Positions 17,789 to 38,879 of a stretch of DNA of 64,000 nt are shown here, piece after piece. The notes beneath the pieces are model-generated. The model saw only the letters and a program-made list of their open reading frames with translations. It had not been told where the DNA came from and did not search any database. The number at the start of each line of letters is the position of its first letter. Positions within the stretch are counted from its first letter, which is position 1. A program made the position numbers and the translations under genes. Source of the DNA: Porpolomopsis calyptriformis (taxonomy: Eukaryota; Basidiomycota; Agaricomycetes; Agaricales; Hygrophoraceae); NCBI GenBank assembly GCA_951640195.1, contig OX621167.1:310001-374000 (forward strand), read 5' to 3'.

Positions 17789-18240
17789 AACTAGGGAGTC
17801 TACTATGAAAAAGTGTATCTTTATATATGAAGCAATAAAAGGGAAATCTATGAAGGACTATAAGGGACGAGTGTTTGAAGGTCATAGGGACCTGATATGT
17901 AAGGGATAATGGTCCGTAATATAGTCTTTAAAGGGGGTTCAATAAGAGTACAGAATGAAGTGAAATGAAAGGGTGAAAGGGACCGTCATAGATGATCCGA
18001 GTGCCACAGTGGCTCAGAGTGCGCGAAACGAGTGTGCTCGTTTGGCGCAGCTTTCAAGGAGCCCGATGAACCAAGTTTGGAGTGAATCCAATCACTGGTT
18101 CTTGAGTTACGGTCGCTTTAGTGATTTTGGCATAATCACTATAAAAGGTGCGCGGAACGAGTATGCTCATTTCGCGCAAGGTGTCACAACGTCACCTGAG
18201 AGTGCGCAAAACGAGTGTGCTCGTTTGGCGCAGATATTTC
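17789..18240. repeat. LTR/3' flank of Gypsy C with three copies of a palindromic motif
   Basis: Non-coding. Minus-strand coding of Gypsy C ends just above, and the sequence AGGACGAAGTTCC followed by a purine run then TGTCAG (minus strand, about 18275-18240) marks its polypurine tract and LTR start near 18245. Within the LTR-like DNA are three imperfect 30-bp palindromes, at 18019-18049, 18149-18178 and 18202-18232, each built from a half-site close to TGCGCAAAACGAGCA and its reverse complement. A TATAAAAG box lies near 18141 on the plus strand. The outer end of the LTR could not be fixed. Confidence 0.6.
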
Positions 18241-18245
18241 TGACA

Positions 18246-18632
18246 TCATCCCCGGCCAAAAGGAACTTCGTCCTCGAAGTTTTGAAGGGAAATAGTCATA
18301 GTCGATGGAATGAAGGGAATGGTGGTTTTCATAATGTAGGACAATATCGTGGGCATGTTTGATCAGTTTGGATCGTGGTTCCCAGGTGGCTTCAGAGGTA
18401 GGGTAGCCTTTCCATTTGACAAGGTATTGGGTCTGTCCTCGCATTAATCGTCGTCCTAGAAGATTTTCTACTTCATATTCGTCATGGCCATCAATCACAT
18501 CAGGGGGGGGTCTTCGGATATCATCGTCAGGGTGGAGTTGTTCATCAAGAACAGCAGGTCTCAGGAGTGAGACATGGAAAACAGGGTGTACGCGCCAGCT
18601 AGGGGGCAGAGTTAGGCGATAGGCAGAGTCAC
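18246..18632 (-). mobile_element. Ty3/Gypsy element C, 3' end of pol with chromodomain
   Basis: Minus-strand coding gives the integrase C-terminal motif PSWRVHPVFHVSLLRP followed by a chromodomain (YEVENLLGRR, QYLVKWKGYPTSEATWEP). Chromodomains of this group direct integration toward marked chromatin. The frame is cut at 18632 by the LTR of element D, so C is the older host of a nested insertion. Everything upstream of this point in pol is missing from the window. Confidence 0.85.
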
Positions 18633-19295
18633 TGTCACAACTGTAGTTGCAAGTCTTTTCGTCAATCACAAGGCAGGCCTTGGAGCTTAATAAGTCTAGT
18701 AGGATGTAGAAGAAAGTCCTGACGGGGACATCCTCGTAAAGGGTGATGATTCCTTCTAAGTTAAGTTTTACTTCTACAAAGAAGTTGTTCTGCAAGTTAA
18801 ATCCGTTGCGTGCCTCTGCTGAGAGTTTAGGGAATATGGGCATGAACGATTGGCTCAGTAGTTATGGGTTTATGTTTCTCTTTTCTTGTTCTGGTGGAAA
18901 AGAAGTCTGATGATTCTGATTGCGTTTGTGCTACTACAAGTAATCTCACAGGAGGACGAAGTGATGATCCGCTTCGCCCTCAGGGTTTATATAGTATTTC
19001 TAAAATAGGAGTCACTATGAGTCAGCTTCCGCAGTCACCCCATTTTCTATTGTTCACAGCCTCTGGTTTAAGGTTTGCCATTGTTCTTAGTCATACTGTG
19101 GAAGGCTGTGTTGTTTTGATGACTCAACTCTATTGGGCATAGCCTTCCACAGTATCAGGCTGTGCTGTCTCATGACTGGTTCCTATTGTTCTTCTAGTCA
19201 TGAGATCGCCGCTGTTTCTATCTCTTGTCCAGCGTATCGGGTTTCTCTTCTTTGACTGAGGAACCTCCTTTTGGTCTTCCCTTTGTGTCTGAGCA

Positions 19296-19303
19296 TATAA
19301 AAG
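19296..19303 (+). promoter_or_regulatory. TATA box of the antisense gene in LTR copy 1
   Basis: TATAAAAG lies 56 bp before the ATG at 19352. In LTR copy 2 the same box is 55 bp before the ATG. It faces the opposite way to the retroelement's own TATA box near 18990, so the LTR has two divergent promoters. Confidence 0.55.
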
Positions 19304-19351
19304 GTGTGGGGTTGTATCCCTATGCTTCAGTTCAATCTTTGTCAATTCATC

Positions 19352-20187
19352 ATGACTCCCTCCCACCAAGGCCACTACGTCCGATTCTTCAAGCAGTCTG
19401 GAGTGGTGCACTGCACCGCTCCTGTCTTCCTCGATTGTGATTCATTTCATTACTACCTTCAGCGAATCCCTTCCGACGCCGACCTCTGCTGGTCTTCCTT
19501 CTCCTGTTTTGCTTGCGGTGGCAAGCATAAGGTCAGAAAGTGTCCATATGTTCGCTGGCCGATCCAGCATGTTTGTGGCTTAATGGAGGATCCGCTTGGT
19601 ATGTATTTTGTTTTGTCTTTATTAGTCCGTGTTTATTGATAATAGGCTTTTTCCCTTTTTAGCTTGGGATGATGATGCCCCTCCCCCTACTTCCCAGCTC
19701 CCTTTGGAGGAGCAGGTCAATTGGGGGTCCGACAAGTGGGCTGACTCTCTTCCTTCCATCAAGAAGGAGGCAGTTGACTGGGCTGCCAGTCCCCCTTTCC
19801 GTCCTTGGACGCCTGGTCCATTGAGTGTTTTGTCTAGTGGTAACACTCTCAACTCTCTTGGTCTCTTCGTAGTTGCTGATTTCTTTGCCTTTTTTAGTCG
19901 AAGATTTGTTGTTGTCGTTGACTAACATCAACGTCAAGATCGAGGAGGAAGAAGTTCCTCCCAGTTTGTTGTGGAGTCCCACCAACAATTGGTTGGGTGA
20001 GGAAGCGAGAAAGATAGCGATGGGTTTCGTCGAAGGGAAGGCTGCCGAGTTGCAGGCCTCCAGTGGTGACACCAATGGGGCAATTTACTGGGGTAATAAG
20101 TTGGCCGCATTAGATGGTCAAGTAGTCTCGAGTTTCGTAGAGTTCTTGAGGGACAGTATGGTGCAAGAGATTGCCAAGACGGACTAG
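19352..20187 (+). CDS. Spliced antisense gene inside LTR of Gypsy D, copy 1 (CCHC-like protein)
   Basis: Three exons, 19352-19598, 19663-19839 and 19898-20187, join in phase and encode 237 residues. Introns are 64 and 58 nt with GT and AG ends. Residues about 51-64 contain a Cys/His cluster, CFACGGKHKVRKC, that resembles a zinc knuckle. The C-terminal part has EEARKIAMGFVEGKAAELQ. No known family recognised. The second LTR copy encodes the same protein with identical exon lengths (247, 177, 290 nt), different intron lengths and mostly silent changes in exon 1, so the coding sequence appears to have been kept. It could be a captured host gene, an accessory gene of the retroelement or a regulator of it. 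Confidence 0.65.
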
Positions 20188-20342
20188 TTTAGATAGTTAG
20201 TCGGACATGGACTCCCCCTCTTTGTACAAATAGTTTCTGCTGCCAATAAAGACAGCCCCCTTTCCAAAGAGAACAGGCAAAGAAAAGAAAAGAACGAAGA
20301 AAAGAGAAGAATTTCAAGAGAGTGAACGCCAATTTCATGACA

Positions 20343-22516
20343 TTACCCCCCTCCTAGAGTCCACCGGAGCCAAGTGAGGATGGACCCAAAGCTCTTCTCC
20401 TCTCGAATTTAAAGTCGGGATGCTTGTCATGAAATTCTGAAATCTTCTCCGCCACATTTTCCAGATTTCTCTCTGGCTCCCAGGAGTTTTCCGAAATTGA
20501 GTACCCTTTCCATTGTATCAAATATTGTTTTTGGTTTCTCCAGAGCCTTCCATCCAGGATTTGGTCAACCTCATATTCCTCCTCCCCTTCAACCTCTATT
20601 CCCCCAGGTTCTTCCAATCTTCTCCCTTTTATCTCTGAGTCCTCATAAGTGCTGAGCAAATTTCCATGAAAAACCGGATGTATTCGATACGTTTTTGGTA
20701 ATTTCAATTTGTAGACTTGGTCTGAGAGTTTCCTTTCTATTTCGAAAGGCCCCAATTTCTTATCTGCCAGTTTTTTGCTAGGAGCGGTAGTGTTGATGTT
20801 TGTTGCATCCAGCCAGACCTTATCTCCAACCTCCCTACGTACTCCTTCCATTTTCCTGTCATAATAGTCTTTCATTGTATTCTGGGCTAACCTGATTGAT
20901 GCCTTGATTTCTTCCTGAACTCTTTTTATCTCTTCAGTCAGATCTTGGGCTCTCGGCACTTCAGATTTTCCAGCCTGAGGGATCGCCATCTTCAGATGAT
21001 ACCCCCTTGCAGCGTAGAATGGAGTTCTTTTTGTGGATGAATTTTCATTGTTGTTGTGGGTGAACTCTGCCATTGGTAAGAACTTGGCCCAGTCATTTTG
21101 TCAATAATTGCAAAAGGTTCTGAGGTACTGCTCTAGTTCTTGGTTAATGCGTTCAGTTTGTCCATCAGTTTGAGGGTGATATGCTGTTGAATAGGCTCCT
21201 TCGATCCCTAGTTTCTTGAAAATTCCCCTCATCAGTTTCGATGTGAACTATGTTCCACAGTCTGAAATCATCTTTTCCGGGACCCCGTGTAATCTCCAAA
21301 TATGATTCATATATAGCTTTATCGTCTCCTCTGTGTCCACCGCAGTGGTCGTCGGTACAAAATGAGCTTCTTTTGTTAATTGATCCACCACAACCCAGAT
21401 GGCATCGTAACCTTCCGATTTGGGTAGTTCCATAATGAAGTCATTTGTCACTGTCTCCCATGGTCTTTCTGAAGGCAGTATCGGTACCAACTTTCCTTTG
21501 GTTCTGTGATAGGATCTTTTCTTTCGATTACAGGTGTCGCAGGTTTTCACGTAATGTTTGACATAAGTTGTGATTCCTGGCCACCAGTAATTTCGGGTGA
21601 GTAGTTCCAGCGTTCGGTATTCTCCTTGATGCCCTCCTTCCAGGGTGTCATGATGCAGCTGTACTAAATCCCTCCTTATTTCTTCATCTTTTGGGACATA
21701 GACTTTTCCTTTGAAAAGAATTAGACCATTCTCAGTGTTCCAGTCTTCCAATCCTTTTCTGAGTTTTCTTGGCGTCCCTCCTTTGACTATTTTCAAGGCT
21801 TCTTCGATTTCAGAGTCAAAGGCTTCAGAGGCTCGAATTCTTTGTAGTATAGGGTGATCTTTGACTGTTGTCATATGTCCTCGAAATAAAGCTTTTATTT
21901 TGAAAACTTCTGGCTTCAATAGAATCTGTCCCTGGTTTTCTTCTCCTTCTATCTGGTAATCTGCTTGTCTTGACAATTTATCTGGTTTTCCCCCTAGTCT
22001 TCCAGGCCGATGTTTGATTATATAATCAAATCTCGTTAGGAATAAGCTCCATCTTGCTTGTCGTCTCATTAGGGTTTTTGCTGAGGCAAAATACTGCAGA
22101 TTCTGATGATCTGATAAGATGGTTACTTGATGTTTCGCCCCTTCCAGATAATGTCTCCATTCTTCAAGTGACGCTATTATGGCTAACAGTTCTTTGTCAT
22201 AAATTTCATAATTCCTTTCCGCGTCATTCATTCCTCTTGAGTAAAAGGCTATAGGATGTATCTTTCCATCTTTTCCATATTGTGAAATAATAGACCCAAT
22301 GGCGTAATCTGAGGCATCACATTCTAAGATGTATGGCTCTTCTGGGTTCGCCATTGCCAAAATTGGTGCTGTGGTGAATTTCTTTTTAAGGAGTTGAAAA
22401 GCTTGTTCCTGTCTCTCTCCCCATTCCCATTTCTTCCCTTTCCTTAACAGCTCTGTGATTGGTCTCACTGTTTTGGAAAATTCAGGAATGAAGCGTCTAT
22501 AGAAGTTTGCGAATCA
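20343..22516 (-). mobile_element. Ty3/Gypsy element D, 5' truncated pol
   Basis: Minus-strand pol runs from the end of reverse transcriptase (FYRRFIPEFSKTVRPITELL, near 22510) through RNase H (LECDASDYAIGS, ILSDHQNLQYF), the H2C2 zinc region (HHDTLEGGHQGEYRTLELL, CDTCNRKK), the integrase core (WVVVDQLTKEAHFVPT) and a C-terminal chromodomain (QYLIQWKGYSISENSWEP) to 20354. The frame is continuous except for a TAG at 21250-21248 and a TGA at 21103-21101. Both sit at codons that the family pattern suggests were CAG and TGG, so both are C to T type changes. Gag, protease and the RT core are missing because the sequence breaks at 22516 where the palindromic element begins. Confidence 0.9.
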
Positions 22517-25500
22517 GGGACCCATTATCAACAAAATGACCAAAATGCTGGCACAAAATTAATTCAAAATTCTTTGGGGGATCGTTAGGGCATCCAAATA
22601 CAATCAGTTTAAGCCATAAATTAAAAAAATCGGCGGTCCCATTCTTGAGATATATGTAAAATACTCCATTTATACCATTATGCAGCCCAGCTATTGTATT
22701 GCACTCTATAAATCACAATTTCATGTCCATTCGATAGGCACAGTGAACTAATGGTGGGCCCACAGAAAATTCCGATTTTTAGAGCATTTGGTATGTCGTG
22801 GTGGAAGATAGTAAGGTTTTAGGAGGAGGCATAAGTATAAGTAGCTATAGACTGCTCTAAAAATCGGGGTTTTATATTCAATCGATAGCCCCAGTGTCAT
22901 AGAGGTGGGGAATACAAAAATCCCGATTTATGGACCATTTGGGGTACTGCAATCAGTGATATAAGGGGTATGGGGGGGTATATCTCCAACTTATCACAGA
23001 GCTCTGTAAAAATCAGGATTTTATGTTCAATCAATAGCACTAGTGTCACAGATACTGGGAATACAAAAATCCTGATTTATAGACCATTTGGGGTACCGCA
23101 ATAAGCTATATAAGGGGTATGGGGGGGTATATCTCCAACTTATCACAGAGCTCTTTAAAAATCAGGATTTCATGTTCAATCGATAGCAGTAGTGTCATAG
23201 AGGCTCGGAAAACAAAATCCTGATGTATAGGCAGAATAAGGTACCGCAATAAGCCATATAAGGGGTATGGGGGGGTATATCTCCAACTTATTACAGAGGT
23301 CTTTAAAAACCTGGGTTTTATATTCAATCAATAGCCCCAGTGTCATAGAGGTGGGGAATACAAAAATCCTAAGTTATAGACCATTTGGGGTACCGCAATC
23401 AGTTATATAAGGGGTATGGGGGGGTATATCTCTAACTTATTACAGACATCTTTAAACATCATAATTTCATGTTCAATCAATAGCACTAGTGTCATAGATG
23501 CTCGGAATAACAATATATGGGTAGAATAAGGCACTCCAATAAGGTATATAAAGGGTATGAGGGAGTATATCTCCAACTTATCACAGACCTCTTTAAACAT
23601 CACAATTTCATGTTCAATCAATAGCACCAGTGTCATAGATGCTCGGAATAACAATATATGGTCAGAATGAGGTACTGCAATAAGCTATATAAGGGGTATG
23701 GGGGAGTATATCTCCAACTTATCACAGACCTCTTTAAACATCACAATTTCATGTTCAATCAATAGCACCAGTGTTACAGATGCTCGGAATGACAATATAT
23801 GGACAGAATGAGGCACTGCAATAAGCTATATAAGGGGTATAGGGGGGTATATCTCTAACTTATCACAGAGCTCTCTGAGCATCAGGATTTCATGTTCAAT
23901 CAATAGCACCAGTGTTACAAACATTGGGAATAGTCCAATCATCATGTGTAGATAGACTGGGGTGCCGCAAGAAGTATACAGGAGGTAGGGGGGGGTATAC
24001 CTTCAAGTTATCATAGAGCTCTCTGAGCATCAGGATTTCATGTTCAATCAATAGCATCAGTGTTATAAACATTGGGAATAGTCTAATCCTCATGTATGGA
24101 TTGACTAGGGTGCCGCAATAAGTATATAAGATATCATGGGGTGGTATACCTTTAACTTATCAGAGAGCTCTCTAAGCATCGGGATTTTATGTTAAATCAA
24201 CAGCATTAGTGTTACAAAGGTCAGGAGTAGTCTAATCCTCATGTGTGGAATGATTGGGGTATAGTATGTAAGAAGTATCGGATGATATACCTTCAACTTA
24301 TCACAGAGCTCTCCAAGTATCAGGATTTTATGTTCAATCAATAGCATGAGTATTACAAAGGTTAGGAATAGTTCAATCATCATGTGTGGATTAACTAGGG
24401 TGCCGCAATAAGTATACAACAGGTATGGGAGGGTATACCTTCAACTTATCAGAGAGCCCTCTAAGCATCAGGATTTTATGTTCAATCAATAGCATTGGTG
24501 CTACAAACATCAGGAGTAGTCCAATCCTCATGTGCGGAATAATTGGGGTACCGTAATTAGCATGCAAGAGGTATCAGAGGTTATACCTTCAACTTCTCAC
24601 CGAGCTCTCTAACCATCAGCATGTTATGTTCAATCAATAGCATTAGTGTGATAACATCCCAGAATAACCACATCCCCATGGGCAGACTGATTGGGGTACC
24701 ACAATGAGCAGTGTAACACATATAGGTAGAATAGACCTGTGAATATATAATCTTCAAATCGATACATTAGCTACTAGATTGCTCTGATCCTGGCTCATCT
24801 GTGTACTCTAATGAATCGGAATCGGATATCAGACTCTAAATCTGCCCGTTCCCTAGCAGCCTTGACTCTTGACTGACTTCTACCTACTATATGTCTTCCT
24901 GAACCTAAATCTTCTCTATCCGCATCTTTCCTAGCAGTGTTCATTCTTGACTGAGTCATCCGCACACCACTCACCCCCTTTCTTCCCTCGTCTTTCTGGG
25001 CAGCCTTGGCCTTTGAGCGAGTAACCCTAACCTGTTGCTCTTTCCCGCTCTCTGAACCTGAAGGATTGTTGTCTGCTTTCCGTCTCACAGGAGGCTTTCG
25101 TTTTTGGTAGATTTTGGCAGACTTTCGGCTCCGAATAGGTGGTTTTATCGATCTCCCCAAGGTTTCATCTAGTCGTCTCTGAAGTATATTCTTTGAAGCA
25201 TGAGGCCTTTTTAGGACCTGAGTTCATGGACGCGCAGCCACCTCTTTCCCAATTTCTTCAATCCAATAGAACTTTGAATTCGAAATAAAGTTGATCTTGC
25301 CTGATTTCATCCCCCATATGACTTGTTTCCCCTTTTTATTCGATAGGCCACCTACAGGAAGGCATTGTAACTGGCCAAATATGTTGTCCAATTCACGGCA
25401 GAGCTGATCACCTTCATCCATATCCCAATCCACAAGATATTGGTGGTAAGTGGAGATATATCCTCCAGGCTCGGTGTATGGTTTCCAGACTGAATTCTCT

Positions 25501-27653
25501 GGGATGTGGATAGTTTGTTCAGGGAAGAAGGTTGCCCGACGTGCTGAAAATGATAGATCACGGGAGTGACTCAAAGGAAGCTTTCCTTTAAGGCCACAGC
25601 TCAAAGGAAGGAATCGGCAACGGTCAATGCCTATGATATGCTGAATCGCAGGTACCGTCCAAGTCTCCATTGCTTCCTGAACTGTGGTTGGCTTGGGTAA
25701 AACACCTGCTGATGCAAACTGCTCTGCCAGACTTAGCCACAGCTGATGCATGAACTCAACAAACAACAGCTTCGTGTAAAGCAGTTCAGGAGCTTCCCAG
25801 TCATCATCCAACCCCCATTCCCTAAGGAAAATCTCTGGCTCGGTTTCCAACAGTTTCTGAATTCTTGACCAAGATGGATCGGGACCCCAAGGGCATGCAT
25901 CTTGCTGATACATTTGAATAAGGTGATATGGCTGGTTGGCTTGAGTTGCCTGTGGCTTCTTCAAGGACTGTCCATATGCTTGGATAACCTCAGCTGGATC
26001 CTCCTCCGGTAGTTCTCTTAGAGATAGCACTCCTTTCTTCAACTTGAGGTCGTGAAGAAAGAACATTCCGAACCTCCACATTATCAAACTGAAATGAAGG
26101 TCTCGCAACACATCATTCAAGAATGTGTGCTTTATCCTTGGCGTGACCATGGTGTGCTTAATCAGGTGGATGATAAGTGTAGCCATCATTCCATAGTTGC
26201 TTGGTCGATTTCGTGAAAGGTGTAGTTGGACATTTTGAAACTCTGCTAGCCTTCTTGCCAACAACTTGAAAAAGAGGCTCGACTTGATCCAAATGATAGG
26301 GTCAGACAACATATAGTCTTGTGCCTGGTAATCATTAGACATTTCTAGTTTGCAGTTATTTCGCTGCTTACCTTTTCAGACGCTACATCAAGAAGCTTTA
26401 TAATGGCTAACCCACTCCCTCTAACTTCTTCCCTAACGCCGAATGACTGCATTTGAGAAGATTGAAACAGCTTTTTCCAGTGATCACAACTAGTTATGAA
26501 TCGGTCATTTGTCTTGACTGCATCACAGTCATCACATAGGTAGTTCGTTTGGCCAGGAAGTCGCACCACCTCAAAGCAAAGGTTGTAGCTGGATCGGAAG
26601 CAAAGGTGTACAAGTCGACTTTTCTTCAACTTGGTTTCAGCCTGTCTCCCTCCATAAGCCCCAAACATGGCAGTATAATGGGTCGTTCCTTTTTTCATCC
26701 CCATAAGGTCGTACGAGTCGTCGATCCTATCTAACCTCCACAGCCCCACCAATGGCTCCTGATCCTCCCTAGAAGGAGGATGGTATGAAATCCCAAGATC
26801 AAGCAAGAGTTCTCCATGCGATCGGTCCTTCATATAATCCCAGTCCATGTTAGGAATCATCGAACAGAGTGCCTGATATATATTCTCAGTTGGGTGGTGC
26901 TGCTTAGAGAGCAGTTTGATACCTCGAGCATCTACAACAAAGAAAAAGGACCCGAATCGGCCTAGGAGATCGGGCTGGTTATTTATGATGTCGCAGAGAG
27001 TGGTTCGCATGGAAGAAAATGCTTCAGGTGTGAGGGGAATGGTCTTGGTCGTACGTCTTGTCCCTATTTTCCATTGGAGATTATTGACGCTTGTAGGAAG
27101 ATACTCCATAATTCCGGTGTAGTTGGCTAAAACCACTGGCAGAGCAGGCATGATCACTTGTGAGAACCACAACTCCTGTACCTCCCTTGGCATCAGAGTA
27201 GTCATTCTATGCGTTCCTGGGTCTTTCCTAATCATACGAGGGAAGAAGACGTAGGTGTTAAATTGGCCTGATCCTTGACCCATCTGCCTGAAATGGGTAT
27301 GTGGCAAGGCACTAAGTGGATACCTTTTAGACCTCTGCCTAGGATTTCGAGTGGTAGGTGGTTGTAGAACCTGGACATAGACATGATTGTTGACAGAGAA
27401 TGGAGGTTTGTCGTCTAACAGTGGAAGAAGCTGAATATTGATTAGACCAATGAACTGTGGTTTATGCGTGACCCATATGACGCTGTTGATATCCACCGAC
27501 ACTGACACTTCTTCATCGTCCAGGTTTACTCTATCCTTCTCCAAGTCGAAGTAGATGAATTTGTTGTTGCGTGCTTTACCTTTTACAAACACACCCTGGC
27601 TCTCTGATGTCCCTTCTACCCCTCCTGCCTCATCCAACATATCCTGAGCACCC
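22517..27653 (-). repeat. Left arm of a 15.5-kb inverted-repeat element
   Basis: The outer end AGGGACCCATTATCAAC is repeated in reverse complement at the outer end of the right arm (about 37966-37979). From there inward the two arms match, first through ~340 bp of unique sequence, then the ~145-bp satellite, then coding DNA, as far as about 27653 in the left arm and 30091 in the right. Predicted proteins of the arms are identical over the 372-residue and 121-residue segments. No target duplication is visible: the left flank is pol of Gypsy D and the right flank is unrelated AT-rich DNA. Confidence 0.85.
22860..24720. repeat. ~145-bp tandem satellite, left arm (about 12 units)
   Basis: Units contain CTCCAACTTATCACAGAGCT, TTCATGTTCAATCAATAGCA and ATATAAGGGGTATGGGGG. 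Successive copies of the first phrase start near 22985, 23131, 23279, 23431, 23571, 23711, 23852, 24002, 24150, 24294, 24438 and 24590, a period of 140-152 bp. Outer units are alike, while inner ones drift (TATCTCC becomes TACCTTC). The short open frames in it are repeat artefacts. The same array, inverted, forms the right arm. Confidence 0.85.
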
Positions 27654-30087
27654 ATCATAGTCACATCTGGGTTGTCCATAGCTGGTAGGGAATTCGGCAC
27701 CTCAGAAGAATGAGAAGATAATGAGGATGGGTATGCAACTGGAGATGATGGTAAACATCCACTTGCTTGATCACTTGAATCCCAGTGTGGAAGAAGGTGG
27801 TCATTGAGGAGAACCGGTTCCTGGTTATTGAACATAGAGAAAAAATCGGCCTGCAACCTATAGCCTCTATCCCTCCAGATACTCCAGTGCTTGCCCAATA
27901 CAAGCATTCCATTGGTGTCAAAGGTCCACGTGTTTGGAATGATATCAGCTTGATCCTCAGAGCAAACCAACATAGCTGATTCGTAGTCATCAAAAGGCCA
28001 CTCATCAATGCTTGTTGCTAATGCTTCTTCACCCCCATTCCCATTTAGCTCAACCTCTGGAAGTTGGATTTCAGGTAGAGACCTTCTGGAAGGCTGAGGT
28101 GGTAGGTTGATTACAATGGAATCATCATCGTTGTCATCATTGTCATCGTTATTGTCATTGTCATTGTCATTGTCATTGTGATTGTTGTCGTCATTGCTGG
28201 CATTGCCATCCTTGTCGTGACTATCCAGAAGATGGCCTAGTTGATTAATATAGGTAGCCTCTTTAGATTGATTATCACAGGTAATCAGAATGAGATAATA
28301 CTCACACTTCATATGAGCAGTTGCAAGCGCAAGTGCTATTACCTCGAAACGCTTGAATTTTAAAAGCCCAGCCTTTATATCATTCACAACCTCAGAATTG
28401 GGTTCCATGGAATACCAAAGCAGGGTCTGAGTCTTGTTCCAGAAGTCATATGATTTTTGTACAGTTTGAAGTGCAGTGAGAAATATTCTCTCTCGCATCG
28501 CATGAATGCATTGCAATTTGGGTGCAAGTGGGTGTTGGTTAATGTCTGTGGAATACATCCAACCATTATCAAAGATTTCTTGGCAAAGCGATGCCATCCA
28601 GGAACCAGTGTCAGCCTCACTCTGTTGAAATATGTATATGAATATGCTTCTTCTGTATAGAAACAAGATTTTCACCGTATTCCAATTTGGTTTGATTACT
28701 TGGGGACCTCGCTCATCCAACTCACTACCCAGGATCCACCCAAACACATTAGCAATAGCCCTCCAATAGTAGTTGCCATTCCACTCCATCCAATCTGAGT
28801 ACATATTGGTTTTGAGTGGAGCTCCATGGCTAAAAACAAGAACCTTCTCCTGCTGGTAATCAAATAAAGCTAGCCTTTGGGTTGCAGAAGATTGCCATGA
28901 TAGTGGAGGGAAAAATAACACAGGCTTTTTCGGGATAGCAACGTGAGGTGGAAGAAGGAGAGTTTTATGGATTTCGGTAGATAGGATGTCTTCTTCTTCT
29001 CTTATTACCCTGCTCACCGTTTCCGAGTCTAGATAGTAGGAATATCTCTGAGATAGCATCTGGGGTTGAATGGACATATACCATGATTTCAAAAGGTAAA
29101 TTTCTATGACCGCATGATCCAGGTGGTTTCCAGGCTTAGCAGATCCCAATGATTGACAAGCTGAAGCCCATATCCTTGGATCTGCTAGCTTCATGTCTAA
29201 TATCCTTGATGAGTCTAATCACCACCAATAATATAAGAACATACCTATAAAAAGCTCTTGCTCAGATCGTGGTAGATTCAATCGAATGGCATTTTTTGCT
29301 AGTAAATGAGAATGAGCGCTGTCACTTTCACTGGATCCAATGAAATCTGATCCATTATTGCTAGCTGGCGATGATGATCGGCTTGTTGAGCTTCTAAAAG
29401 TTTAGTATTTAACCTAACATTTCGAATGATAGATTTATTCACCGGTGTCTGGTTTCAAATCGCGAGTTGTTCCTTCTAATATCCACCGAAGGCTCTGAAG
29501 GAGAGCTATAATCACTAAACCTAACCAGTATTAATACGCAAGTATCTTATGATTTCTCTTAAAATACATACCATGCTTTCGCCACCTGGAAAATAAATAA
29601 ATGTAAGTTATTATTGTCATAGGTTAATTGAGACATACAGCATCATTATCCTTTCTACTTATTGCGTTTTGGACCCTTGAAGGACCTGGCTGGGGACCTA
29701 AGGGAGCCAATGGAGGTATCGATATATATTGCTGATCCAAATTCTGGATGTTAAGATGATTTAGGCTAATTAACGTTGTCTGTAATAACGTGAGTACTTT
29801 AACCTTGAAAACAGATATACACTTACTGAGTATACTGGCTTTTTGTTGATTAATATATGTTTTTTGGAAGGCATATGTTTTTCTCCTAGCATCGGTATTG
29901 GCATTGGCATCTTCTCTGCACAAGGCATATTCAGGATATTACGTATATCACTATCATCTGAACCACTAGAAGTCGAATCCCCTTCCTGGTTTATTATGGT
30001 TTTATTAGCCTTGTAATGATTTAATTGTGTGAATCGAATTAGATACATAACTACTAGGGATAGGCTTACCTTGGCTAGTGAGGACAT
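24795..30087 (-). CDS. Large unknown protein of the palindromic element, left copy
   Basis: Eight exons splice in phase: 30087-30070, 30009-29827, 29779-29639, 29585-29572, 29520-29443, 29393-29245, 29196-26372, and 26324 to a TGA at 25226-25224. This gives 1,502 residues. After the TGA the same frame stays open for another 142 residues to 24795, a basic tail with repeated SRVKAARE-like units. The N-terminal third is Ser-rich; near the middle is an Asp/Asn run encoded by a GTCATT-type microsatellite, then conserved-looking parts such as GRFGSFFFVVDARGIKLL and a Cys pair in YLCDDCDAVKTND. The last 370 residues are Trp-rich. I recognise no domain and no transposase catalytic set. The ATG lies only a few bases from the inverted-copy junction, so the true 5' end may be lost. 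Confidence 0.6.
28110..28205. repeat. Trinucleotide/hexanucleotide microsatellite within the large gene
   Basis: Runs of GTCATT and GTTGTCATC units on the plus strand encode an Asp/Asn-rich tract on the minus strand. Such tracts vary in length easily; this one lies in the part of the gene not present in the right arm. Confidence 0.7.
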
Positions 30088-30105
30088 AGCTATGATCCTC
30101 AGGAT

Positions 30106-33100
30106 ATGTTGGATGAGGCGGGAGGGGTGGAAGGGACATCAGAGAGCCAGGGTGTGTTTGTAAAAGGTAAAGCACGCAACAACAAATTCATCTACTTCGA
30201 CTTGGAGAAGGATAGAGTAAACCTGGATGATGAAGAAGTGTCAGTGTCAGTGGATATCAACAGCGTCATATGGGTCACGCATAAACCACAGTTCATTGGT
30301 CCAATCAATATTCAGCTTCTTCCACTGTTAGACGACAAACCTCCATTCTCTATCAACAATCATGTCTATGTCCAGGTTCTACAACCACCTACCACTCGAA
30401 ATCCTAGGCAGAGGTCTAAAAGGTATCCACTTAGTGCCTTGCCACATACCCATTTCAGGCAGATGGGTCAAGGATCAGGCCAATTTAACACCTACGTCTT
30501 CTTCCCTCGTATGATTAGGAAAGACCCAGGAACACATAGAATGACTACTCTGATGCCAAGGGAGGTACAGGAGTTGTGGTTCTCACAAGTGATCATGCCT
30601 GCTCTGCCAGTGGTTTTAGCCAACTACACCGGAATTATGGAGTATCTTCCTACAAGCGTCAATAATCTCCAATGGAAAATAGGGACAAGACGTACGACCA
30701 AGACCATTCCCCTCACACCTGAAGCATTTTCTTCCATGCGAACCACTCTCTGCGACATCATAAATAACCAGCCCGATCTCCTAGGCCGATTCGGGTCCTT
30801 TTTCTTTGTTGTAGATGCTCGAGGTATCAAACTGCTCTCTAAGCAGCACCACCCAACTGAGAATATATATCAGGCACTCTGTTCGATGATTCCTAACATG
30901 GACTGGGATTATATGAAGGACCGATGTCATGATCCCAAACTGATTTGGTATCAAACTTAACCAAAGATCATGCATTCAGCAAGTAGCATCCATAGCTCAA
31001 ATATCCTTTATCTTATCTTATCTTATCTTATCTTAGATAAGATATCACTGTCCCTCACACATTATCTTATCTCAGATAAGATACACCACTATCTTTACTT
31101 ATGCTATCTTATCATGGACAATAGCATTCTTCCCCATTATTCTCTGAGTCAGAATGACTCATATCCCATTTTTCTATTGTTCTGTCATCACTCCATTGTT
31201 CTCTGAGTCACTATGACTCATATTAATCTCCTCCATTGTTCTCCTCATTGTCTGACTCATAGTGAGTCACAATTCAAACTCCTCATTGTTCTTTTATCCA
31301 TTGTTCTTATTTCCTATTGTTCTCACTGCCCATTGTTCTCAAACATATATAAAGGGCCCCCTTTTCACCAGTGAGGAGTTAAGTTCACTTCCAGTTCACT
31401 TTTACCCCACTTTATCCCCCCCCTCCCCCACTCTCCCCTTTCCCTTGAACTCACCCCTAGTACTCAGTACCTAGTACTACCTCTTATTGATACTACTTGT
31501 CTGTAGTCAATACATCCAATCTAGTCTAGTCTATTAAGCTTATACCCTGTGTGATTTCGCCTAAGCCTTCTTACGTTAAGAACCAACTTAGGAATCACCC
31601 CTTGACGTATTTCTGTAAGTTGAAGATAGCCACCGAGGACTATCTTATCTTACTTCAGCCCCTGCTTATTCATCACATTCTCTAAGTCTCAGTCCTTATT
31701 GGAGAGAGACCTCACTGTGATACGTATTCTTCTAAGTCAGCCGTTGACTTCATTCTTGCTCTCCCAGTCAATACTATCCATTAGGTTTGGATAGCCTGCT
31801 CATCTGTACATCCTAGCCAAGGATTACTTAAGCCCCATCAAAGGAGGAAGTGTCCATTACTCAATCAATTCACATCTCCCCCGAACAACTAGGACTTACT
31901 TGATTAACGTACAACTCCAGTAGTTCTAGAAGTGAAGTATTTATATTCCACCTGATACCGATCGCATGGAGAACTCTTGCTTGATCTTGGGATTTCATAC
32001 CATCCTCCTTCTAGGGAGGATCAGGAGCTATTGGTAGGGCTGTGGAGGTTAGATAGGATTGACAACTCGTATGACCTTATGGGGATGAAAAAAGGAACGA
32101 CCCATTATACTGCCATGTTTGGGGCTTATGGAGGGAGACAGGCTGAAACCAAGTTGAAGAAAAGTCGACTTGTACACCTTTGCTTCCGATCCAGCTACAA
32201 CCTTTGCTTTGAGGTGGTGCGACTTCCTGGCCAAACGAACTACCTATGTGATGACTGTGATGCAGTCAAGACAAATGACCGATTCATGACTAGTTGTGAT
32301 CACTGGAAAAAGCTGTTTCAATCTTCTCAAATGCAGTCATTCGGCATTAGGGAAGAAGTTAGAGGGAGTGGGTTAGCCATTATAAAGCTTCTTGATGTAG
32401 CGTCTGAAAAGGTAAGCAGCGAAATAACTGCAAACTAGAAATGTCTAATGATTACCAGGCACAAGACTATATGTTGTCTGACCCTATCATTTGGATCAAG
32501 TCGAGCCTCTTTTTCAAGTTGTTGGCAAGAAGGCTAGCAGAGTTTCAAAATGTCCAACTACACCTTTCACGAAATCGACCAAGCAACTATGGAATGATGG
32601 CTACACTTATCATCCACCTGATTAAGCACACCATGGTCACGCCAAGGATAAAGCACACATTCTTGAATGATGTGTTGCGAGACCTTCATTTCAGTTTGAT
32701 AATGTGGAGGTTCGGAATGTTCTTTCTTCACGACCTCAAGTTGAAGAAAGGAGTGCTATCTCTAAGAGAACTACCGGAGGAGGATCCAGCTGAGGTTATC
32801 CAAGCATATGGACAGTCCTTGAAGAAGCCACAGGCAACTCAAGCCAACCAGCCATATCACCTTATTCAAATGTATCAGCAAGATGCATGCCCTTGGGGTC
32901 CCGATCCATCTTGGTCAAGAATTCAGAAACTGTTGGAAACCGAGCCAGAGATTTTCCTTAGGGAATGGGGGTTGGATGATGACTGGGAAGCTCCTGAACT
33001 GCTTTACACGAAGCTGTTGTTTGTTGAGTTCATGCATCAGCTGTGGCTAAGTCTGGCAGAGCAGTTTGCATCAGCAGGTGTTTTACCCAAGCCAACCACA

Positions 33101-33988
33101 GTTCAGGAAGCAATGGAGACTTGGACGGTACCTGCGATTCAGCATATCATAGGCATTGACCGTTGCCGATTCCTTCCTTTGAGCTGTGGCCTTAAAGGAA
33201 AGCTTCCTTTGAGTCACTCCCGTGATCTATCATTTTCAGCACGTCGGGCAACCTTCTTCCCTGAACAAACTATCCACATCCCAGAGAATTCAGTCTGGAA
33301 ACCATACACCGAGCCTGGAGGATATATCTCCACTTACCACCAATATCTTGTGGATTGGGATATGGATGAAGGTGATCAGCTCTGCCGTGAATTGGACAAC
33401 ATATTTGGCCAGTTACAATGCCTTCCTGTAGGTGGCCTATCGAATAAAAAGGGGAAACAAGTCATATGGGGGATGAAATCAGGCAAGATCAACTTTATTT
33501 CGAATTCAAAGTTCTATTGGATTGAAGAAATTGGGAAAGAGGTGGCTGCGCGTCCATGAACTCAGGTCCTAAAAAGGCCTCATGCTTCAAAGAATATACT
33601 TCAGAGACGACTAGATGAAACCTTGGGGAGATCGATAAAACCACCTATTCGGAGCCGAAAGTCTGCCAAAATCTACCAAAAACGAAAGCCTCCTGTGAGA
33701 CGGAAAGCAGACAACAATCCTTCAGGTTCAGAGAGCGGGAAAGAGCAACAGGTTAGGGTTACTCGCTCAAAGGCCAAGGCTGCCCAGAAAGACGAGGGAA
33801 GAAAGGGGGTGAGTGGTGTGCGGATGACTCAGTCAAGAATGAACACTGCTAGGAAAGATGCGGATAGAGAAGATTTAGGTTCAGGAAGACATATAGTAGG
33901 TAGAAGTCAGTCAAGAGTCAAGGCTGCTAGGGAACGGGCAGATTTAGAGTCTGATATCCGATTCCGATTCATTAGAGTACACAGATGA
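30106..33988 (+). pseudogene. Right-arm copy of the large unknown gene, 5' truncated and interrupted
   Basis: Starts inside the coding region (MLDEAGGVEGTSESQ, about residue 710 of the left protein) and continues in step with the left copy to 33988. A solo LTR at 30925-31956 splits it between WDYMKDR and the next residues. Beyond the LTR, coding resumes near 31962, a 47-nt intron at about 32411-32457 is kept, and the last exon ends at the same TGA (33557-33559), followed by the same open basic tail to 33988. Only a few residue changes separate the copies (Pro/Leu, Asp/Asn, Ile/Met, Val/Ile). The N-terminal half and the promoter are missing, so this copy is dead. Confidence 0.8.
30925..31956 (+). 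mobile_element. Solo LTR (about 1,032 bp) in the right arm
   Basis: Flanked by ACCGA at 30920-30924 and 31957-31961; the uninterrupted left arm has the same site once. It starts TGTCATGATCC, has a TATA box TATATAAA near 31346 on the plus strand, and many CCATTGTTCT and GAGTCATAGTGACTCA-type motifs upstream of it, as enhancer-like repeats in a U3 would. It ends CCACCTGAT; the exact last base is uncertain because the target and the end share bases. No coding frame. Confidence 0.8.
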
Positions 33989-35337
33989 GCCAGGATCAGA
34001 GCAATCTAGTAGCTAATGTATCGATTTGAAGATTATATATTCACAGGTCTATTCTACCTATATGTGTTACACTGCTCATTGTGGTACCCCAATCAGTCTG
34101 CCCATGGGGATGTGGTTATTCTGGGATGTTATCACACTAATGCTATTGATTGAACATAACATGCTGATGGTTAGAGAGCTCGGTGAGAAGTTGAAGGTAT
34201 AACCTCTGATACCTCTTGCATGCTAATTACGGTACCCCAATTATTCCGCACATGAGGATTGGACTACTCCTGATGTTTGTAGCACCAATGCTATTGATTG
34301 AACATAAAATCCTGATGCTTAGAGGGCTCTCTGATAAGTTGAAGGTATACCCTCCCATACCTGTTGTATACTTATTGCGGCACCCTAGTTAATCCACACA
34401 TGATGATTGAACTATTCCTAACCTTTGTAATACTCATGCTATTGATTGAACATAAAATCCTGATACTCGGAGAGCTCTGTGATAAGTTGAAGGTATATCA
34501 TCCGATACTTCTTACATACTATACCCCAATCATTCCACACATGAGGATTAGACTACTCCTGACCTTTGTAACACTAATGCTGTTGATTTAACATAAAATC
34601 CTGATGATTAGAGAGCTCTCTGATAAGTTAAAGGTATACCACCCCATGATATCTTATATACTTATTGCGGCACCTGTCACAACTGTAGTTGCAAGTCTTT
34701 TCGTCAATCACAAGGCAGGCCTTGGAGCTTAATAAGTCTAGTAGGATGTAGAAGAAAGTTCTGACGGGGACGTCCTCGTAAAGGGTGATTATTCCTTCTG
34801 AGTTTAGTTTTACTTCTACAAAGAAGTTGTTCTGCAAGTTAAATCCATTGCGTGCCTCTGCTGAGAGTTTAGGGAATATGGGCATGAACAATTGGCTCAG
34901 TAGTTATGGGTTTATGTTTCTCTTTTCTTGTTCTGATGGAAAAGAAGTCTGATGATTCTGATTGCGTTCGTGCTACTACAAGTAATCTCACAGGAGGACG
35001 AAGTGATGATCCGCTTCGCCCTCAGGGTTTATATAGTATTTCTAAAATGGGAGTCATTTATGAGTCAGCCTCCGCAGTCACCCCATTTTCTATTGTTCAC
35101 AGCCTTCAATTAAGGTTTGCCATTGTTCCTAGTCATTCTGCAAAAGGCTGTGTGCTTCTGATGACTCAATTCTATTGGGCATAGCCTTCCACAGTATGAG
35201 GCTGTGTTATCTCATGACTGGTTTCTATTGTTCTTCTGGTCATGAGATCGCTGTTGTTTCTATCTCTTGCCCGGCGTATCGGGTTTCTCTTCTTTGACTG
35301 AGGAACCTCCTTTTGGTCTTCCCTTTGTGTCTGAGCA

Positions 35338-35345
35338 TATAAAAG
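35338..35345 (+). promoter_or_regulatory. TATA box of the antisense gene in LTR copy 2
   Basis: TATAAAAG, 55 bp before the ATG at 35393, in the same context as in LTR copy 1. Confidence 0.55.
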
Positions 35346-35392
35346 GTGTGGGGTTGTATCCCTACACTTCAGTTCAATCCTTGTCAATCATC

Positions 35393-36224
35393 ATGACTCC
35401 TTCCCACCAAGGCCACTACGTCCAATTCTTCAAGCAGTCTGGAGTGGTGCACCGCACCGCTCCTGTCTTTCTCGATTGCGATTCGTTTCATTACTATCTT
35501 CAGCGCATCCCTTCCGACGCCGACCTCTGCTGGTCTTCCTTCTCTTGTTTTGCTTGCGGTGGCAAGCATAAGGTCAGAAAGTGTCCGTATGTTCGCTGGC
35601 CAATCCAGCATGTTTGTGGCTTGATGGAGGATCCACTTGGTATGTATCTTGTTTTGTCTTTATTAGTCTGTGTTTATTGATAATAGGCTTTCCCTTTTTA
35701 GCTTGGGATGATGATGCCCCTCCTCCCACCTCCAAGCTCCCTTTGGAGGAGCAAGTTGATTGGAGTTCCGACCGTTGGGGGTATCCCCTCCCCTTTGATG
35801 ATGCTAAGCCTGAGGACTTGGCTACCAGCCCCCCTTTCCATCCTTGGACCCCTGGTCCAACAAGTGTTTTGTCTAGTGGTGAGCCTTTAACTCTCTCGCT
35901 CTCTTCATAGTTGCTGATTCCCTGTCTTTTTTAGTCGAAGATTTGTCCTTGTCGTTGACTAATGTCAACGTCAAGATCGAGGAGGAAGAAGTTCCTCCCA
36001 GTTTGTTGTGGAGTCCCACCAACAATTGGTTGGGTGAGGAAGCGAGAAAGATAGCGATGGGTTTTGTCGAAGGGAAGGCTGCCGAGTTGCAGGCCTCCGG
36101 TGGTGACACCAATGGGGCAATTTACTGGGGTAATAAGTTGGCCGCATTAGATGGTCAAGTAGTCTCAAGTTTTGTAGAGTTCTTGAGGGACAGTATGGTG
36201 CAGGAGATTGCCAAGACAGACTAG
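35393..36224 (+). CDS. Spliced antisense gene inside LTR of Gypsy D, copy 2 (CCHC-like protein)
   Basis: Exons 35393-35639, 35702-35878 and 35935-36224 join in phase to 237 residues. Exon lengths equal those of copy 1 exactly, while the introns are 2 nt shorter each (62 and 56 nt). In exon 1 I count about ten silent changes against two amino-acid changes relative to copy 1; in exon 3 about five against three or four. Exon 2 is more divergent but keeps frame and length. The Cys/His cluster CFACGGKHKVRKC is unchanged. Function unknown. Confidence 0.65.
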
Positions 36225-37979
36225 TATAAATAGTTAGTCAGACATGGACTCCTCCCTTTGTACAAGTAGTTTCTGCTGCCAATAAAGACAGCCTCCCTCC
36301 CAAAAGAACCGTCACAAGAAAGAAAAGAAAAGAACAAAGAAAAGAGAGAAATTTTAAGAGAGTGAACGCCAATTTCATGACAGCACCCTAGTCAATCCAT
36401 ACATGAGGATTAGACTATTCCCAATGTTTATAACACTGATGCTATTGATTGAACATGAAATCCTGATGCTCGGAGAGCTCTGTGATAACTTGAAGGTATA
36501 CCCCCCCCTACCTCCTGTATACTTCTTGCGGCACCCCAGTCTATCTACACATGATGATTGGACTATTCCCAATGTTTGTAACACTGGTGCTATTGATTGA
36601 ACATGAAATCCTGATGCTCAGAGAGCTCTGTGATAAGTTAGAGATATACCCCCCTATACCCCTTATATAGCTTATTGCAGTGCCTCATTCTGTCCATATA
36701 TTGTCATTCCGAGCATCTGTAACACTGGTGCTATTGATTGAACATGAAATTGTGATGTTTAAAGAGGTCTGTGATAAGTTGGAGATATACTCCCCCATAC
36801 CCCTTATATAGCTTATTGCAGTACCTCATTCTGACCATATATTGTTATTCCGAGCATCTATGACACTGGTGCTATTGATTGAACATGAAATTGTGATGTT
36901 TAAAGAGGTCTGTGATAAGTTGGAGATATACTCCCTCATACCCTTTATATACCTTATTGGAGTGCCTTATTCTACCCATATATTGTTATTCCGAGCATCT
37001 ATGACACTAGTGCTATTGATTGAACATGAAATTATGATGTTTAAAGATGTCTGTAATAAGTTAGAGATATACCCCCCCATACCCCTTATATAACTGATTG
37101 CGGTACCCCAAATGGTCTATAACTTAGGATTTTTGTATTCCCCACCTCTATGACACTGGGGCTATTGATTGAATATAAAACCCAGGTTTTTAAAGACCTC
37201 TGTAATAAGTTGGAGATATACCCCCCCATACCCCTTATATGGCTTATTGCGGTACCTTATTCTGCCTATACATCAGGATTTTGTTATTCCGAGCCTCTAT
37301 GACACTACTGCTATCAATTGAACATGAAATCCTGATTTTTAAAGAGCTCTGTGATAAGTTGGAGATATACCCCCCCATACCCCTTATATAGCTTATTGCA
37401 GTACCCCAAATGGTCTATAAATCAGGATTTTTGTATTCCCAGTATCTGTGACACTAGTGCTATCGATTGAACATAAAATCCTGATTTTTAAAGAGCTCTG
37501 TGATAAGTTGGAGATATACCCCCCCATACCCCTTATATCACTGATTGCGGTACCCCAAATGGTCCATAAATCGGGATTTTTGTATTCCCCACCTCTATGA
37601 CACTGGGGCTATCGATTGAATATGAAACCCCAATTTTTAGAGCAGTCTATAGCTACTTATACTTATGCCTCCTCCTAAAACCTTACTATCATCCACCACG
37701 ACATACCAAATGCTCTAAAAATCGGAATTTTCTGTGGGCCCACCATTAGTTCACTGTGCCTATCGAATGGACATGAAATTGTGATTTATAGAGTGCAATA
37801 CAATAGCTGGGCTGCATAATGGTATAAATGGAGTATTTTACATATATCTCAAGAATGGGACCACCGATTTTTTTAATTTATGGCTTAAACTGATTGTATT
37901 TGGATGCCCTAACGATCCCCCAAAGAATTTTGAATTAATTTTGTGCCAGCATTTTGGTCATTTTGTTGATAATGGGTCC

Positions 37980-38870
37980 CTGAAGATGGGTCCCTGATGA
38001 ATCACTTCAAAATTCATACAGTATATCTCCTATTATATGCAAATTGGACTACCTAATTACATGTGCTCAGATGTAGTGGTTCATATGCTGTATTTAAGTC
38101 AATCCTATAATGATACTATTGTATTGTCACTGTATTTTCACAATGTTTAATGGTCAAAATCACCTCAGACTTAATCCTGAATGTCCACTAGTATGTACCC
38201 ATTGCCCCACCTAATTTTGTGTGTCTGGCTGTAGTAGTTCTTGTGCTGGACATGTATAAGTCCTATAATGACACCCTAGTATTCTCACCAACCTTTGGCA
38301 ACATCTAATGGCCAGAATCACTTTGAATTTAGTCCCAGATATCTATCATTATATATCCATCACCTGGCCAAATTTTGTGTCTCTGCATTAAGCAGTTCCT
38401 GTGCTGTATTTGAATAAACTTTGTGTTACAGTGGCAGAGGGAGACCATTGTCTCCACATGGTGTAGGAATTCAATGGAATTGCTCCCCAGTCCATACATC
38501 TATGATATGTGAATAGTCACGTTATTGGTCACGTGACACGTGACATGTGACATAGCACCGAAATATCTTTCTCCATAGCTAACCTGTCTATCCTATATCA
38601 CTTAACTTGCATGATACAGTCTATGATAAGTAAATGACCACCTACTAAAGAAGGTCTAATCTATCAAGCATGGGTTGCAAAGTATGCTCAATATGAAGCA
38701 AGTCAATTTGTCAACTATTTTGTTTCATACTGATTATCCAAAGTCTGATTATCCAAAGTCTGTTCCTATCATTTAGTTGAATACTGAAAAGACTATTCAG
38801 TACTCAACATATACTATATCTTAGCTTGTACTTATCAGATTGATTTCAAATTTGATACACATACCCACCC
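37980..38870. other. AT-rich DNA right of the palindromic element
   Basis: No gene recognised. The first bases repeat the element's terminal GGGTCCCT once more. Phrases such as ATTGTCACTGTATTTTCAC and CTAATGGCCAGAATCAC recur loosely near 38120-38170 and 38260-38330, spaced about 150 bp, so this may be a decayed tandem repeat. Confidence 0.4.
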
Positions 38871-38879
38871 TCATATCCC

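What the first reader, a model, noticed from the sequence alone, without database searches (positions are those of the whole stretch)
19352..20187. An antisense, intron-containing gene is carried inside a retrotransposon LTR and kept under selection in two copies
The 1.7-kb LTR of Gypsy D holds a three-exon gene on the strand opposite to the retroelement, with its own TATA box 55-56 bp before the ATG. Copies at 19352-20187 and 35393-36224 have identical exon lengths (247, 177, 290 nt) while both introns differ by 2 nt. In exon 1 I count about ten silent against two replacement differences. An LTR should carry no selected protein gene, least of all one with introns in antisense: introns survive retrotransposition only if they are not spliced from the element's genomic RNA, which antisense placement guarantees. 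A Cys/His knuckle suggests nucleic-acid binding. It could be a captured host gene, a self-regulator or a helper, and may be a new type of retroelement cargo.
Basis: partly seen in the sequence, partly recalled or inferred. Interest (0 to 1): 0.88.

Follow-up and report, generated by a model that had tools for sequence, protein, structure and literature searches.

The report
Antisense spliced gene inside retrotransposon LTRs
A fungal jumping gene appears to carry, inside its repeated ends and on the opposite strand, a complete small gene with two introns whose protein evolution has preserved; it looks like an accessory gene of the jumping element itself, and its role is not known.

Summary
Both window copies lie in 1.7-kb LTRs of a Ty3/gypsy chromovirus (18633-20342; 34675-36382, a solo LTR). 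The genome (33.5 Mb) holds about 250 LTR copies or pieces. In 50 gene copies read, exon lengths are 247/177/290 in 49 (one lacks 3 nt in frame), while introns vary (62-65, 53-58) and keep GT-AG. In 40 full-length LTRs there are no exon gap blocks, against 40 in introns and flanks. dN/dS falls from 0.735 between near-identical copies to 0.11 between divergent ones, and in element pairs is close to that of pol (gene 0.07-0.15, pol 0.08-0.12). Seven exon-1 Cys/His are invariant in 50 of 50. The antisense TATA region is among the two best-conserved stretches of the LTR; AATAAA follows the gene, so the whole predicted transcription unit lies in U3 and persists in solo LTRs. No homologue was found; 80 of 80 exact exon-1 sites on five contigs are in or beside LTR sequence. 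Best reading: an element-selected accessory gene, perhaps for a zinc-binding nuclear regulator. Transcription and splicing are untested. New variant of antisense accessory genes of LTR retroelements.

The parts
18633..20342 (-). LTR copy 1 (3' LTR of a 5'-truncated Ty3/gypsy chromovirus on the minus strand), 1710 bp
   Evidence: full-length match to the LTRs of complete elements; right side joins the internal 3' end
19352..19598 (+). exon 1 (247 nt) of the antisense gene, copy 1; codes for the Cys/His region
19599..19662 (+). intron 1 (64 nt), GTATGT...TTTTAG, with a TTGAT branch-point-like site
19663..19839 (+). exon 2 (177 nt); acidic, Pro-rich, fastest-evolving exon
19840..19897 (+). intron 2 (58 nt), GTAACA...TTTTAG, with a CTGAT branch-point-like site
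19898..20187 (+). exon 3 (290 nt) with stop; acidic, helical in a low-confidence model
19296..19301 (+). antisense TATA box (TATAAA), 56 nt before the ATG, in one of the two best-conserved stretches of the LTR
   Evidence: (TATAAA in 40 of 40 full LTRs)
20245..20250 (+). AATAAA poly(A)-like signal for the antisense gene, inside the LTR
   Evidence: AATAAA after the stop in 39 of 40 full LTRs
18986..18993 (-). sense TATA box of the retroelement
   Evidence: 40 of 40 full LTRs
18953..18963 (-). expected start of R: 11 nt complementary to the primer-binding site (Tf1-like self-priming), about 30 nt after the sense TATA
   Evidence: exact in 19 of 40 full LTRs
19093..19155 (.). imperfect dyad between the divergent TATA boxes (18-nt arms)
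   Evidence: 88% Watson-Crick over 40 copies, 16-32% when slid
19168..19205 (.). second dyad (10-nt arms)
   Evidence: 93% Watson-Crick over 40 copies, 3-30% when slid
20354..22513 (-). 3' part of pol (RNase H, integrase zinc domain, SH3_Tf2-1, chromodomain), in two separate open frames
34675..36382 (-). LTR copy 2, solo, target duplication GCACC
35393..35639 (+). exon 1, copy 2
35702..35878 (+). exon 2, copy 2
35935..36224 (+). exon 3, copy 2
35338..35343 (+). antisense TATA box, copy 2, 55 nt before the ATG

Best explanation
The U3 part of this self-priming Ty3/gypsy chromovirus contains a complete antisense gene: its own TATA box, three exons, two introns and an AATAAA. Shown by sequence: reading frame, splice sites and antisense core promoter are conserved across the copies read, and lineages that left descendants kept the protein about as strictly as pol, so selection acts on the element. 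Inferred: the antisense strand is transcribed from LTRs, solo LTRs included, spliced, and translated into a 237-residue protein with a zinc-binding Cys/His N-terminus and an acidic helical C-terminus. Because the introns lie antisense to the genomic RNA, they are not spliced out during retrotransposition, and each new copy inherits the gene twice, once per LTR. Most likely role (inferred, weaker): an accessory regulator acting in the nucleus on the element's own LTR, promoting or protecting its expression, comparable in role to retroviral antisense regulators or transposon anti-silencing proteins.
For: Exon lengths 247/177/290 in 49 of 50 copies; introns of variable length with GT-AG ends in 50 of 50. 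0 exon gap blocks in 40 full LTRs. dN/dS 0.126 over 1225 non-independent pairs, from 0.735 (21 pairs with dS under 0.03) to 0.11 (656 pairs with dS over 0.3). Internal branches 0.117 with 0 stop-involving changes, terminal 0.265 with 20 (50 copies); 0.145 with 2 and 0.233 with 16 in the 42 copies not chosen by protein. Neutral N/S expectation 2.69. Constraint close to that of pol. Annotated frame alone strongly constrained. C46, C52, C55, H59, C64, H73, C75 in 50 of 50. Antisense TATAAA 40 of 40; its region is the top 45-mer by invariant positions (43 of 45, the best R/U5 window 42) and second of 38 fixed bins by diversity (0.0240 against 0.0225 in R/U5). AATAAA 39 of 40. The host has Piwi, RdRP and DNA-methylase family matches, so silencing that such a protein could oppose is plausible.
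Against: No RNA data: transcription and splicing are unproven. No homologue or fold names a function; the models are too poor to compare (mean pLDDT 39.8 and 53.2). A trans-acting protein with many gene copies (32 of 42 unselected copies intact) should come under weak selection per copy, so the constraint needs most copies to be silent or selection in genomes with few copies. The shortest terminal branches still show dN/dS below 1 (0.41, 0.48), which simple neutral decay does not fully explain. Frequency classes of variants are not monotonic. Nuclear location and zinc binding are untested.
Confidence: 0.6

Rival explanations
1. Self-limiting factor: each insertion, even after collapse to a solo LTR, adds a gene dose, and the protein (or the antisense RNA with it) restrains transposition, in the way Ty1 p22 does.
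For: The whole gene lies in the LTR, and 29 of 44 full LTRs sit singly between target duplications, so solo LTRs keep it; about 250 copies or pieces; the antisense mRNA would be complementary to the U3 end of genomic RNA.
Against: Selection on element lineages should not strictly preserve a factor that lowers their own spread. Ty1 p22 is part of Gag (PMC4599808, listing), whereas this protein shows no similarity to a 432-residue Gag piece.
Confidence: 0.2
2. Structural or life-cycle helper (nucleocapsid-like chaperone, nuclear import or integration factor) supplied from the antisense strand.
For: Knuckle-like C-x2-C-x3-H-x4-C; constraint close to that of pol.
Against: The element's Gag already has a canonical C-x2-C-x4-H-x4-C knuckle (by eye); no similarity to Gag; a separate promoter in every LTR is not needed for such a role.
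Confidence: 0.2
3. Captured host gene now evolving as cargo, possibly useful to the host.
For: Introns and a promoter-to-terminator structure look like a cellular gene.
Against: No non-LTR copy: of 80 exact exon-1 sites on contigs C1-C5, 71 have an exact R/U5 site within 670 nt and the other 9 lie in LTRs or LTR pieces. No homologue among 5.8 billion proteins at the tool's sensitivity. Copies accumulate stops on terminal branches, so the host does not keep them one by one.
Confidence: 0.08
4. Not a gene: frame and exon-length conservation come from recent common descent and from constraint on the sense RNA.
For: All copies share descent; the sense strand must also work as U3.
Against: Divergent pairs have dS 0.41 with dN 0.045; only the annotated spliced frame is strongly constrained; introns and flanks gained gaps where exons did not.
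Confidence: 0.03

Closest known systems
Antisense additional ORFs of LTR retrotransposons (Grande gene23, RIRE2, Retand, PvRetro13; Boty brtn in a fungus) - PMC7264820, parts 1 and 2 of 3 read
   Same: Antisense, present in most copies, conserved like other element proteins, own promoter in Grande, mostly orphan proteins, function unknown
   Different: Those lie between pol and the 3' LTR, one per element; here the gene is wholly within the LTR, twice per element and once per solo LTR, with two predicted introns
HTLV-1 HBZ and APH proteins - PMC10186651, passages read
   Same: Antisense gene with promoter activity in the 3' LTR, spliced transcript; suppression of sense transcription for APH-3/4
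   Different: TATA-less promoter; coding part largely outside the LTR (recalled); no sequence comparison was made here
HIV-1 antisense LTR gene (HAP) - PMC1654176, abstract read
   Same: Claimed antisense gene inside the U3-R regions of an LTR, with protein products
   Different: Initiator element instead of a TATA box; no introns mentioned in the abstract; here selection on the protein is shown from many copies
MMTV sag in U3 (recalled, from no call)
   Same: Protein gene contained in the U3 of an LTR
   Different: Sense strand
VANC anti-silencing proteins of VANDAL transposons - PMC10398659, abstract read
   Same: Works-like model: element-encoded protein acting on its own noncoding DNA against silencing
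   Different: Arabidopsis VANDAL elements, another kind of transposon; no sequence relation tested
Ty1 p22 copy-number control - PMC4599808, search listing only
   Same: Element-encoded, dose-dependent regulator (model for the first rival)
   Different: Sense-strand part of Gag
Tf1/sushi-type self-primed chromoviruses (class recalled; SH3_Tf2-1 and Chromo domain names)
   Same: The carrier: chromodomain, 11-nt self-complementary primer site, 5-bp target duplications
   Different: Its LTR holds the antisense gene

Membership tests
Ty3/gypsy chromovirus (carrier) | Paired LTRs with TG...CA ends and short target duplication | tested here: met
Ty3/gypsy chromovirus (carrier) | RT/RNase H before integrase, chromodomain at the end | tested here: met
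   RNase H, integrase zinc domain, SH3_Tf2-1, Chromo in that order in the window; the RT domain is cut off in the window and was not scanned in the complete elements; the integrase core had no match over 0.001 in the window piece
Self-primed (Tf1-like) element | Primer site complementary to the 5' end of its own transcript | tested here: met
   11 of 11 nt in the C6 element, 30 nt after the start of the sense TATA; the 11-mer is exact in 19 of 40 LTRs; transcript start not measured
Antisense additional gene of LTR retrotransposons | Opposite strand to gag-pol, in most copies, conserved as protein | tested here: met
Antisense additional gene of LTR retrotransposons | Lies between pol and the 3' LTR | tested here: not met
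   whole gene inside the LTR
HBZ-like antisense retroviral gene | Spliced antisense transcript from the LTR | not testable with these tools
   splice sites conserved, no RNA data
Retroviral CCHC zinc knuckle | C-x2-C-x4-H-x4-C | tested here: not met
   spacing is x2-x3-x4; no Pfam match; that it works like one remains open
VANC-like anti-silencing protein | Binds own noncoding DNA and removes silent marks | not testable with these tools
   only conserved dyads and a conserved promoter are seen

The most novel reading that the evidence does not exclude
The LTR itself is a portable intron-bearing gene. LTR-LTR recombination, which normally kills an element, here leaves a complete gene, so a genome accumulates hundreds of solo-LTR genes whose joint product regulates or shields the family: a retroelement that counts or protects itself through its own fossils.
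Probability: 0.25. Interest if true: 0.9.

Novelty: new variant of a known kind. Interest (0 to 1): 0.78.

Why it matters
LTRs are usually treated as regulatory DNA and solo LTRs as inert remains. Here each intact LTR holds a self-contained protein gene kept by selection, with introns that survive retrotransposition because they are antisense. It gives a natural test of element-level selection (internal against terminal branches), predicts many spliced antisense transcripts in one fungal genome, and makes the open question of what antisense genes of LTR elements do directly testable, since promoter, protein and possible target all fit in 1.7 kb.

Tried and rejected
Homology: whole protein against 5.8 billion proteins, none at E 0.001; exon-1 profile of 11 copies, none at E 0.1; Pfam, none at E 10; PDB sequences, none at E 10. 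The same database does hold fungal elements (pol query: 4575 hits among 7991 scored candidates, 120 listed, names among them Grifola, Lyophyllum, Moniliophthora, Ganoderma, but also Morchella and a fish); unspliced gene calls in metagenomes could miss this gene. Structure: exon 1 and exon 3 folded apart with two sequences each, pLDDT 39.8 and 53.2; no fold search was run, as it would be meaningless. Derivation from Gag: no similarity.

Frequency classes: replacement/silent per site 0.23 for singletons, 0.44 for minor counts 2 and 3-5, 0.11 above 5. Not monotonic, I think because singletons include long branches of lone subfamilies; the tree counts were used instead. In one search the L013 pol piece (82.7% identity) may belong to another element, so its four pairs are not used; one very close pair (C5 and window) has pol 0.31 and gene 0.21. 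Copies seen but left out of the 50: L027 (partial LTR), the second, interrupted LTR of L013, a partial LTR in L005, and L054-L061, fetched later only to look for LTRs. L049 has lost its ATG. Protein search of the own genome gave 337 matches from 150 of 567 candidates; only the best are listed, so diverged relatives at the tail were not seen. A dyad-covariation idea found one pair with two Watson-Crick types in arm set 1 and none in set 2: weak. The species was not identified.

Literature: (titles and abstract starts of the 20, 15, 10, 20 and 15 papers listed out of 127, 20, 40, 54 and 41) showed no report of an intron-containing antisense gene inside an LTR; the library lacks most subscription papers, among them the Boty brtn paper, known here only from PMC7264820 and a passage of PMC8365987. 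Passages of PMC5408684 and abstract and passages of PMC10787394 (crapaud, an element with a variable LTR half) were read and gave no antisense gene. Searches served to name the VANC and Ty1 p22 models.

Full report
What was checked. Of 894 and 647 two-intron models that stay open in the two copies, 141 exon-length combinations are shared; the stated one (247/177/290) has consensus-like donors (GTATGT; GTAACA or GTGAGC) and TAG acceptors and gives the most identical residues of the 141 (214 of 237, plus the stop). Between the two window copies dS is 0.28 and dN 0.057; exon 1 has 11 silent and 2 replacement differences.

The carrier. The window lies on contig C5 (310001-374000) of a 33.5-Mb, 17-contig genome, G000. 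The closest named pol relative is from the basidiomycete Grifola, and I take the host to be a basidiomycete (inference). Three complete elements (on C5, C6, C12) have two LTRs of about 1.71 kb, 7.05 kb apart, 98.3-98.6% alike, between matching 5-bp flanks. Of 44 full-length LTRs in the loci held, 29 sit singly between perfect 5-bp duplications, 9 join internal sequence, 6 have neither. On the minus strand the window shows RNase H, integrase zinc domain, SH3_Tf2-1 and chromodomain. The primer site after the 5' LTR is an exact 11-nt complement of a site in the same LTR that starts 30 nt after the start of the sense TATA, as in self-primed Tf1-type elements (class recalled). This fixes the element's direction independently and puts the gene in U3, antisense.

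Copies. Own-genome pattern searches with up to 3 mismatches count 246 exon-1 sites, 250 R/U5 sites and 177 antisense-promoter sites, with 0 for the reversed control patterns; pieces of LTRs count as well. By eye, 71 of the 80 exact exon-1 sites listed on C1-C5 have an exact R/U5 site within 670 nt; one of the rest was already held as a full LTR (L016), and the other eight, fetched, are five full LTRs and three LTR pieces. No free-standing parent gene was seen; a diverged one would not be found this way.

Selection. I read 50 gene copies: 42 came from a DNA search, its flanks or the window, 8 from a protein search. Exon lengths are 247/177/290 in 49 and 247/177/287 in one; introns range over 62-65 and 53-58 nt; both introns keep GT and AG in all 50. 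In 40 full-length LTRs the exons (714 nt) have no gap block, the introns (122 nt) 14 and the rest of the LTR (874 nt) 26. Over 1225 pairs, which are not independent, dS is 0.291, dN 0.037, ratio 0.126; with rising dS the ratio runs 0.735 (21 pairs), 0.433, 0.251, 0.169, 0.121, 0.121, 0.135, 0.111. That is what selection on the element followed by decay after insertion predicts. On a tree of the 50, internal branches have 218 silent, 94 replacement and 0 stop-involving changes; terminal branches 248, 242 and 20; short terminal against long internal branches gives Fisher p 2e-8, with classes that I chose by branch length. With only the 42 copies not chosen by protein: internal 159, 85 and 2; terminal 215, 185 and 16, a smaller contrast. 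The spectrum of 144 noncoding singletons predicts N/S 2.69 without selection; N/S is 0.43 on internal and 1.5 on the shortest terminal branches. So terminal branches are relaxed but not free. Intact copies: 37 of 50, or 32 of 42. In five element pairs pol has dN/dS 0.08-0.12 and the antisense gene 0.07-0.15; a sixth, very close pair has 0.31 and 0.21. Of six frames, on every sixth pair, the annotated one has 0.12, the others 0.39-1.71.

Anatomy. TATAAA lies 55-56 nt before the ATG in the window and in that stretch in 40 of 40 full LTRs; AATAAA follows the stop in 39 of 40; the sense TATA is present in 40 of 40. The 45-mer around the antisense TATA has the most invariant positions of any in the LTR (43 of 45; best R/U5 window 42); by diversity in fixed 45-nt bins it is second (0.0240) after a bin in R/U5 (0.0225). 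Branch-point-like YTRAY sites occur in 49 of 50 first and 50 of 50 second introns. The two TATA boxes are divergent, about 300 bp apart, with two dyads between them kept at 88% and 93% Watson-Crick over 40 copies. Promoter, exons, introns and poly(A)-like signal all fit in one LTR, so a solo LTR keeps the whole gene.

Protein. Exon 1 holds an invariant Cys/His set (C46, C52, C55, H59, C64, H73, C75, also H20 and H33; 50 of 50), consistent with zinc binding; exon 2 is acidic, Pro-rich and evolves fastest (ratio 0.24 against 0.11 and 0.09 for exons 1 and 3); exon 3 is acidic and modelled as helices at low confidence. A V-K-I-E-E stretch that fits a SUMO-type consensus (recalled) is kept in 42 of 50 copies. 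No family, fold or homologue was found.

How it probably works. Shown: a conserved spliced-frame gene with its own conserved core promoter, selected along transposing lineages. Inferred: expression, splicing, zinc binding, nuclear action. A trans-acting product from so many copies would not by itself put strong selection on each copy; the strictness therefore suggests that most copies are silent when one is active, or that selection acts mainly when an element enters a genome with few copies. Both fit a protein that helps its own LTR stay active in a host with Piwi, RdRP and DNA-methylase family genes, so I put that role first, and self-limitation and a life-cycle helper next.

Against known kinds. 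Antisense additional genes are known in plant elements and in fungal Boty, between pol and the 3' LTR (PMC7264820); HTLV-1 hbz is a spliced antisense gene driven from the 3' LTR (PMC10186651, passages); an antisense gene within the HIV-1 LTR has been claimed (PMC1654176, abstract). The present gene differs in lying entirely in the LTR with introns and in persisting in solo LTRs. I saw no such report in the listings, in an open-access library only.

Noticed in passing
22514-27648 and 30098-37983: Very long inverted repeat, matched arms 98.9-99.6% alike, with 141-149-nt tandem repeats in its outer parts; it begins where the Gypsy pol is cut (about 22514), and solo LTR copy 2 sits in its right arm.
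   Followed up: partly
25224-26375, 32408-33559 and 26345-29218: Open frames of 383 aa (one in each arm) and 957 aa in the inverted repeat; the two minus-strand ones have no Pfam match at E 0.001, the third was not scanned; possibly a separate mobile element.
   Followed up: partly
18184-18861 and 2767-3381: Pieces of other Gypsy elements: a chromodomain end of pol beside LTR 1, and an integrase piece.
   Followed up: partly
18633-19351: The noncoding R/U5 and promoter part of the LTR diverges far less (0.055) than silent sites of the gene (0.29) or introns (0.17): constraint, or exchange between subfamilies.
   Followed up: partly
19093-19155 and 19168-19205: Two conserved dyads between the divergent TATA boxes; possible operator sites.
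   Followed up: partly
59457-64000: Strong strand asymmetry (AT skew 0.40, GC skew -0.34 at 60-62 kb); a 630-aa open frame at 59457-61349 without Pfam match.
   Followed up: no
57463-58815: Thiolase gene on the minus strand, probably a host gene.
   Followed up: no
38778-41028: Further arrays of repeats spaced 119-168 nt in direct and inverted order.
   Followed up: no
G000 C1:644086-644616 and C9:1284293-1284793: More diverged or altered gene copies (71% identity with stops; residues 82-237 matched in one stretch) that were not read.
   Followed up: no
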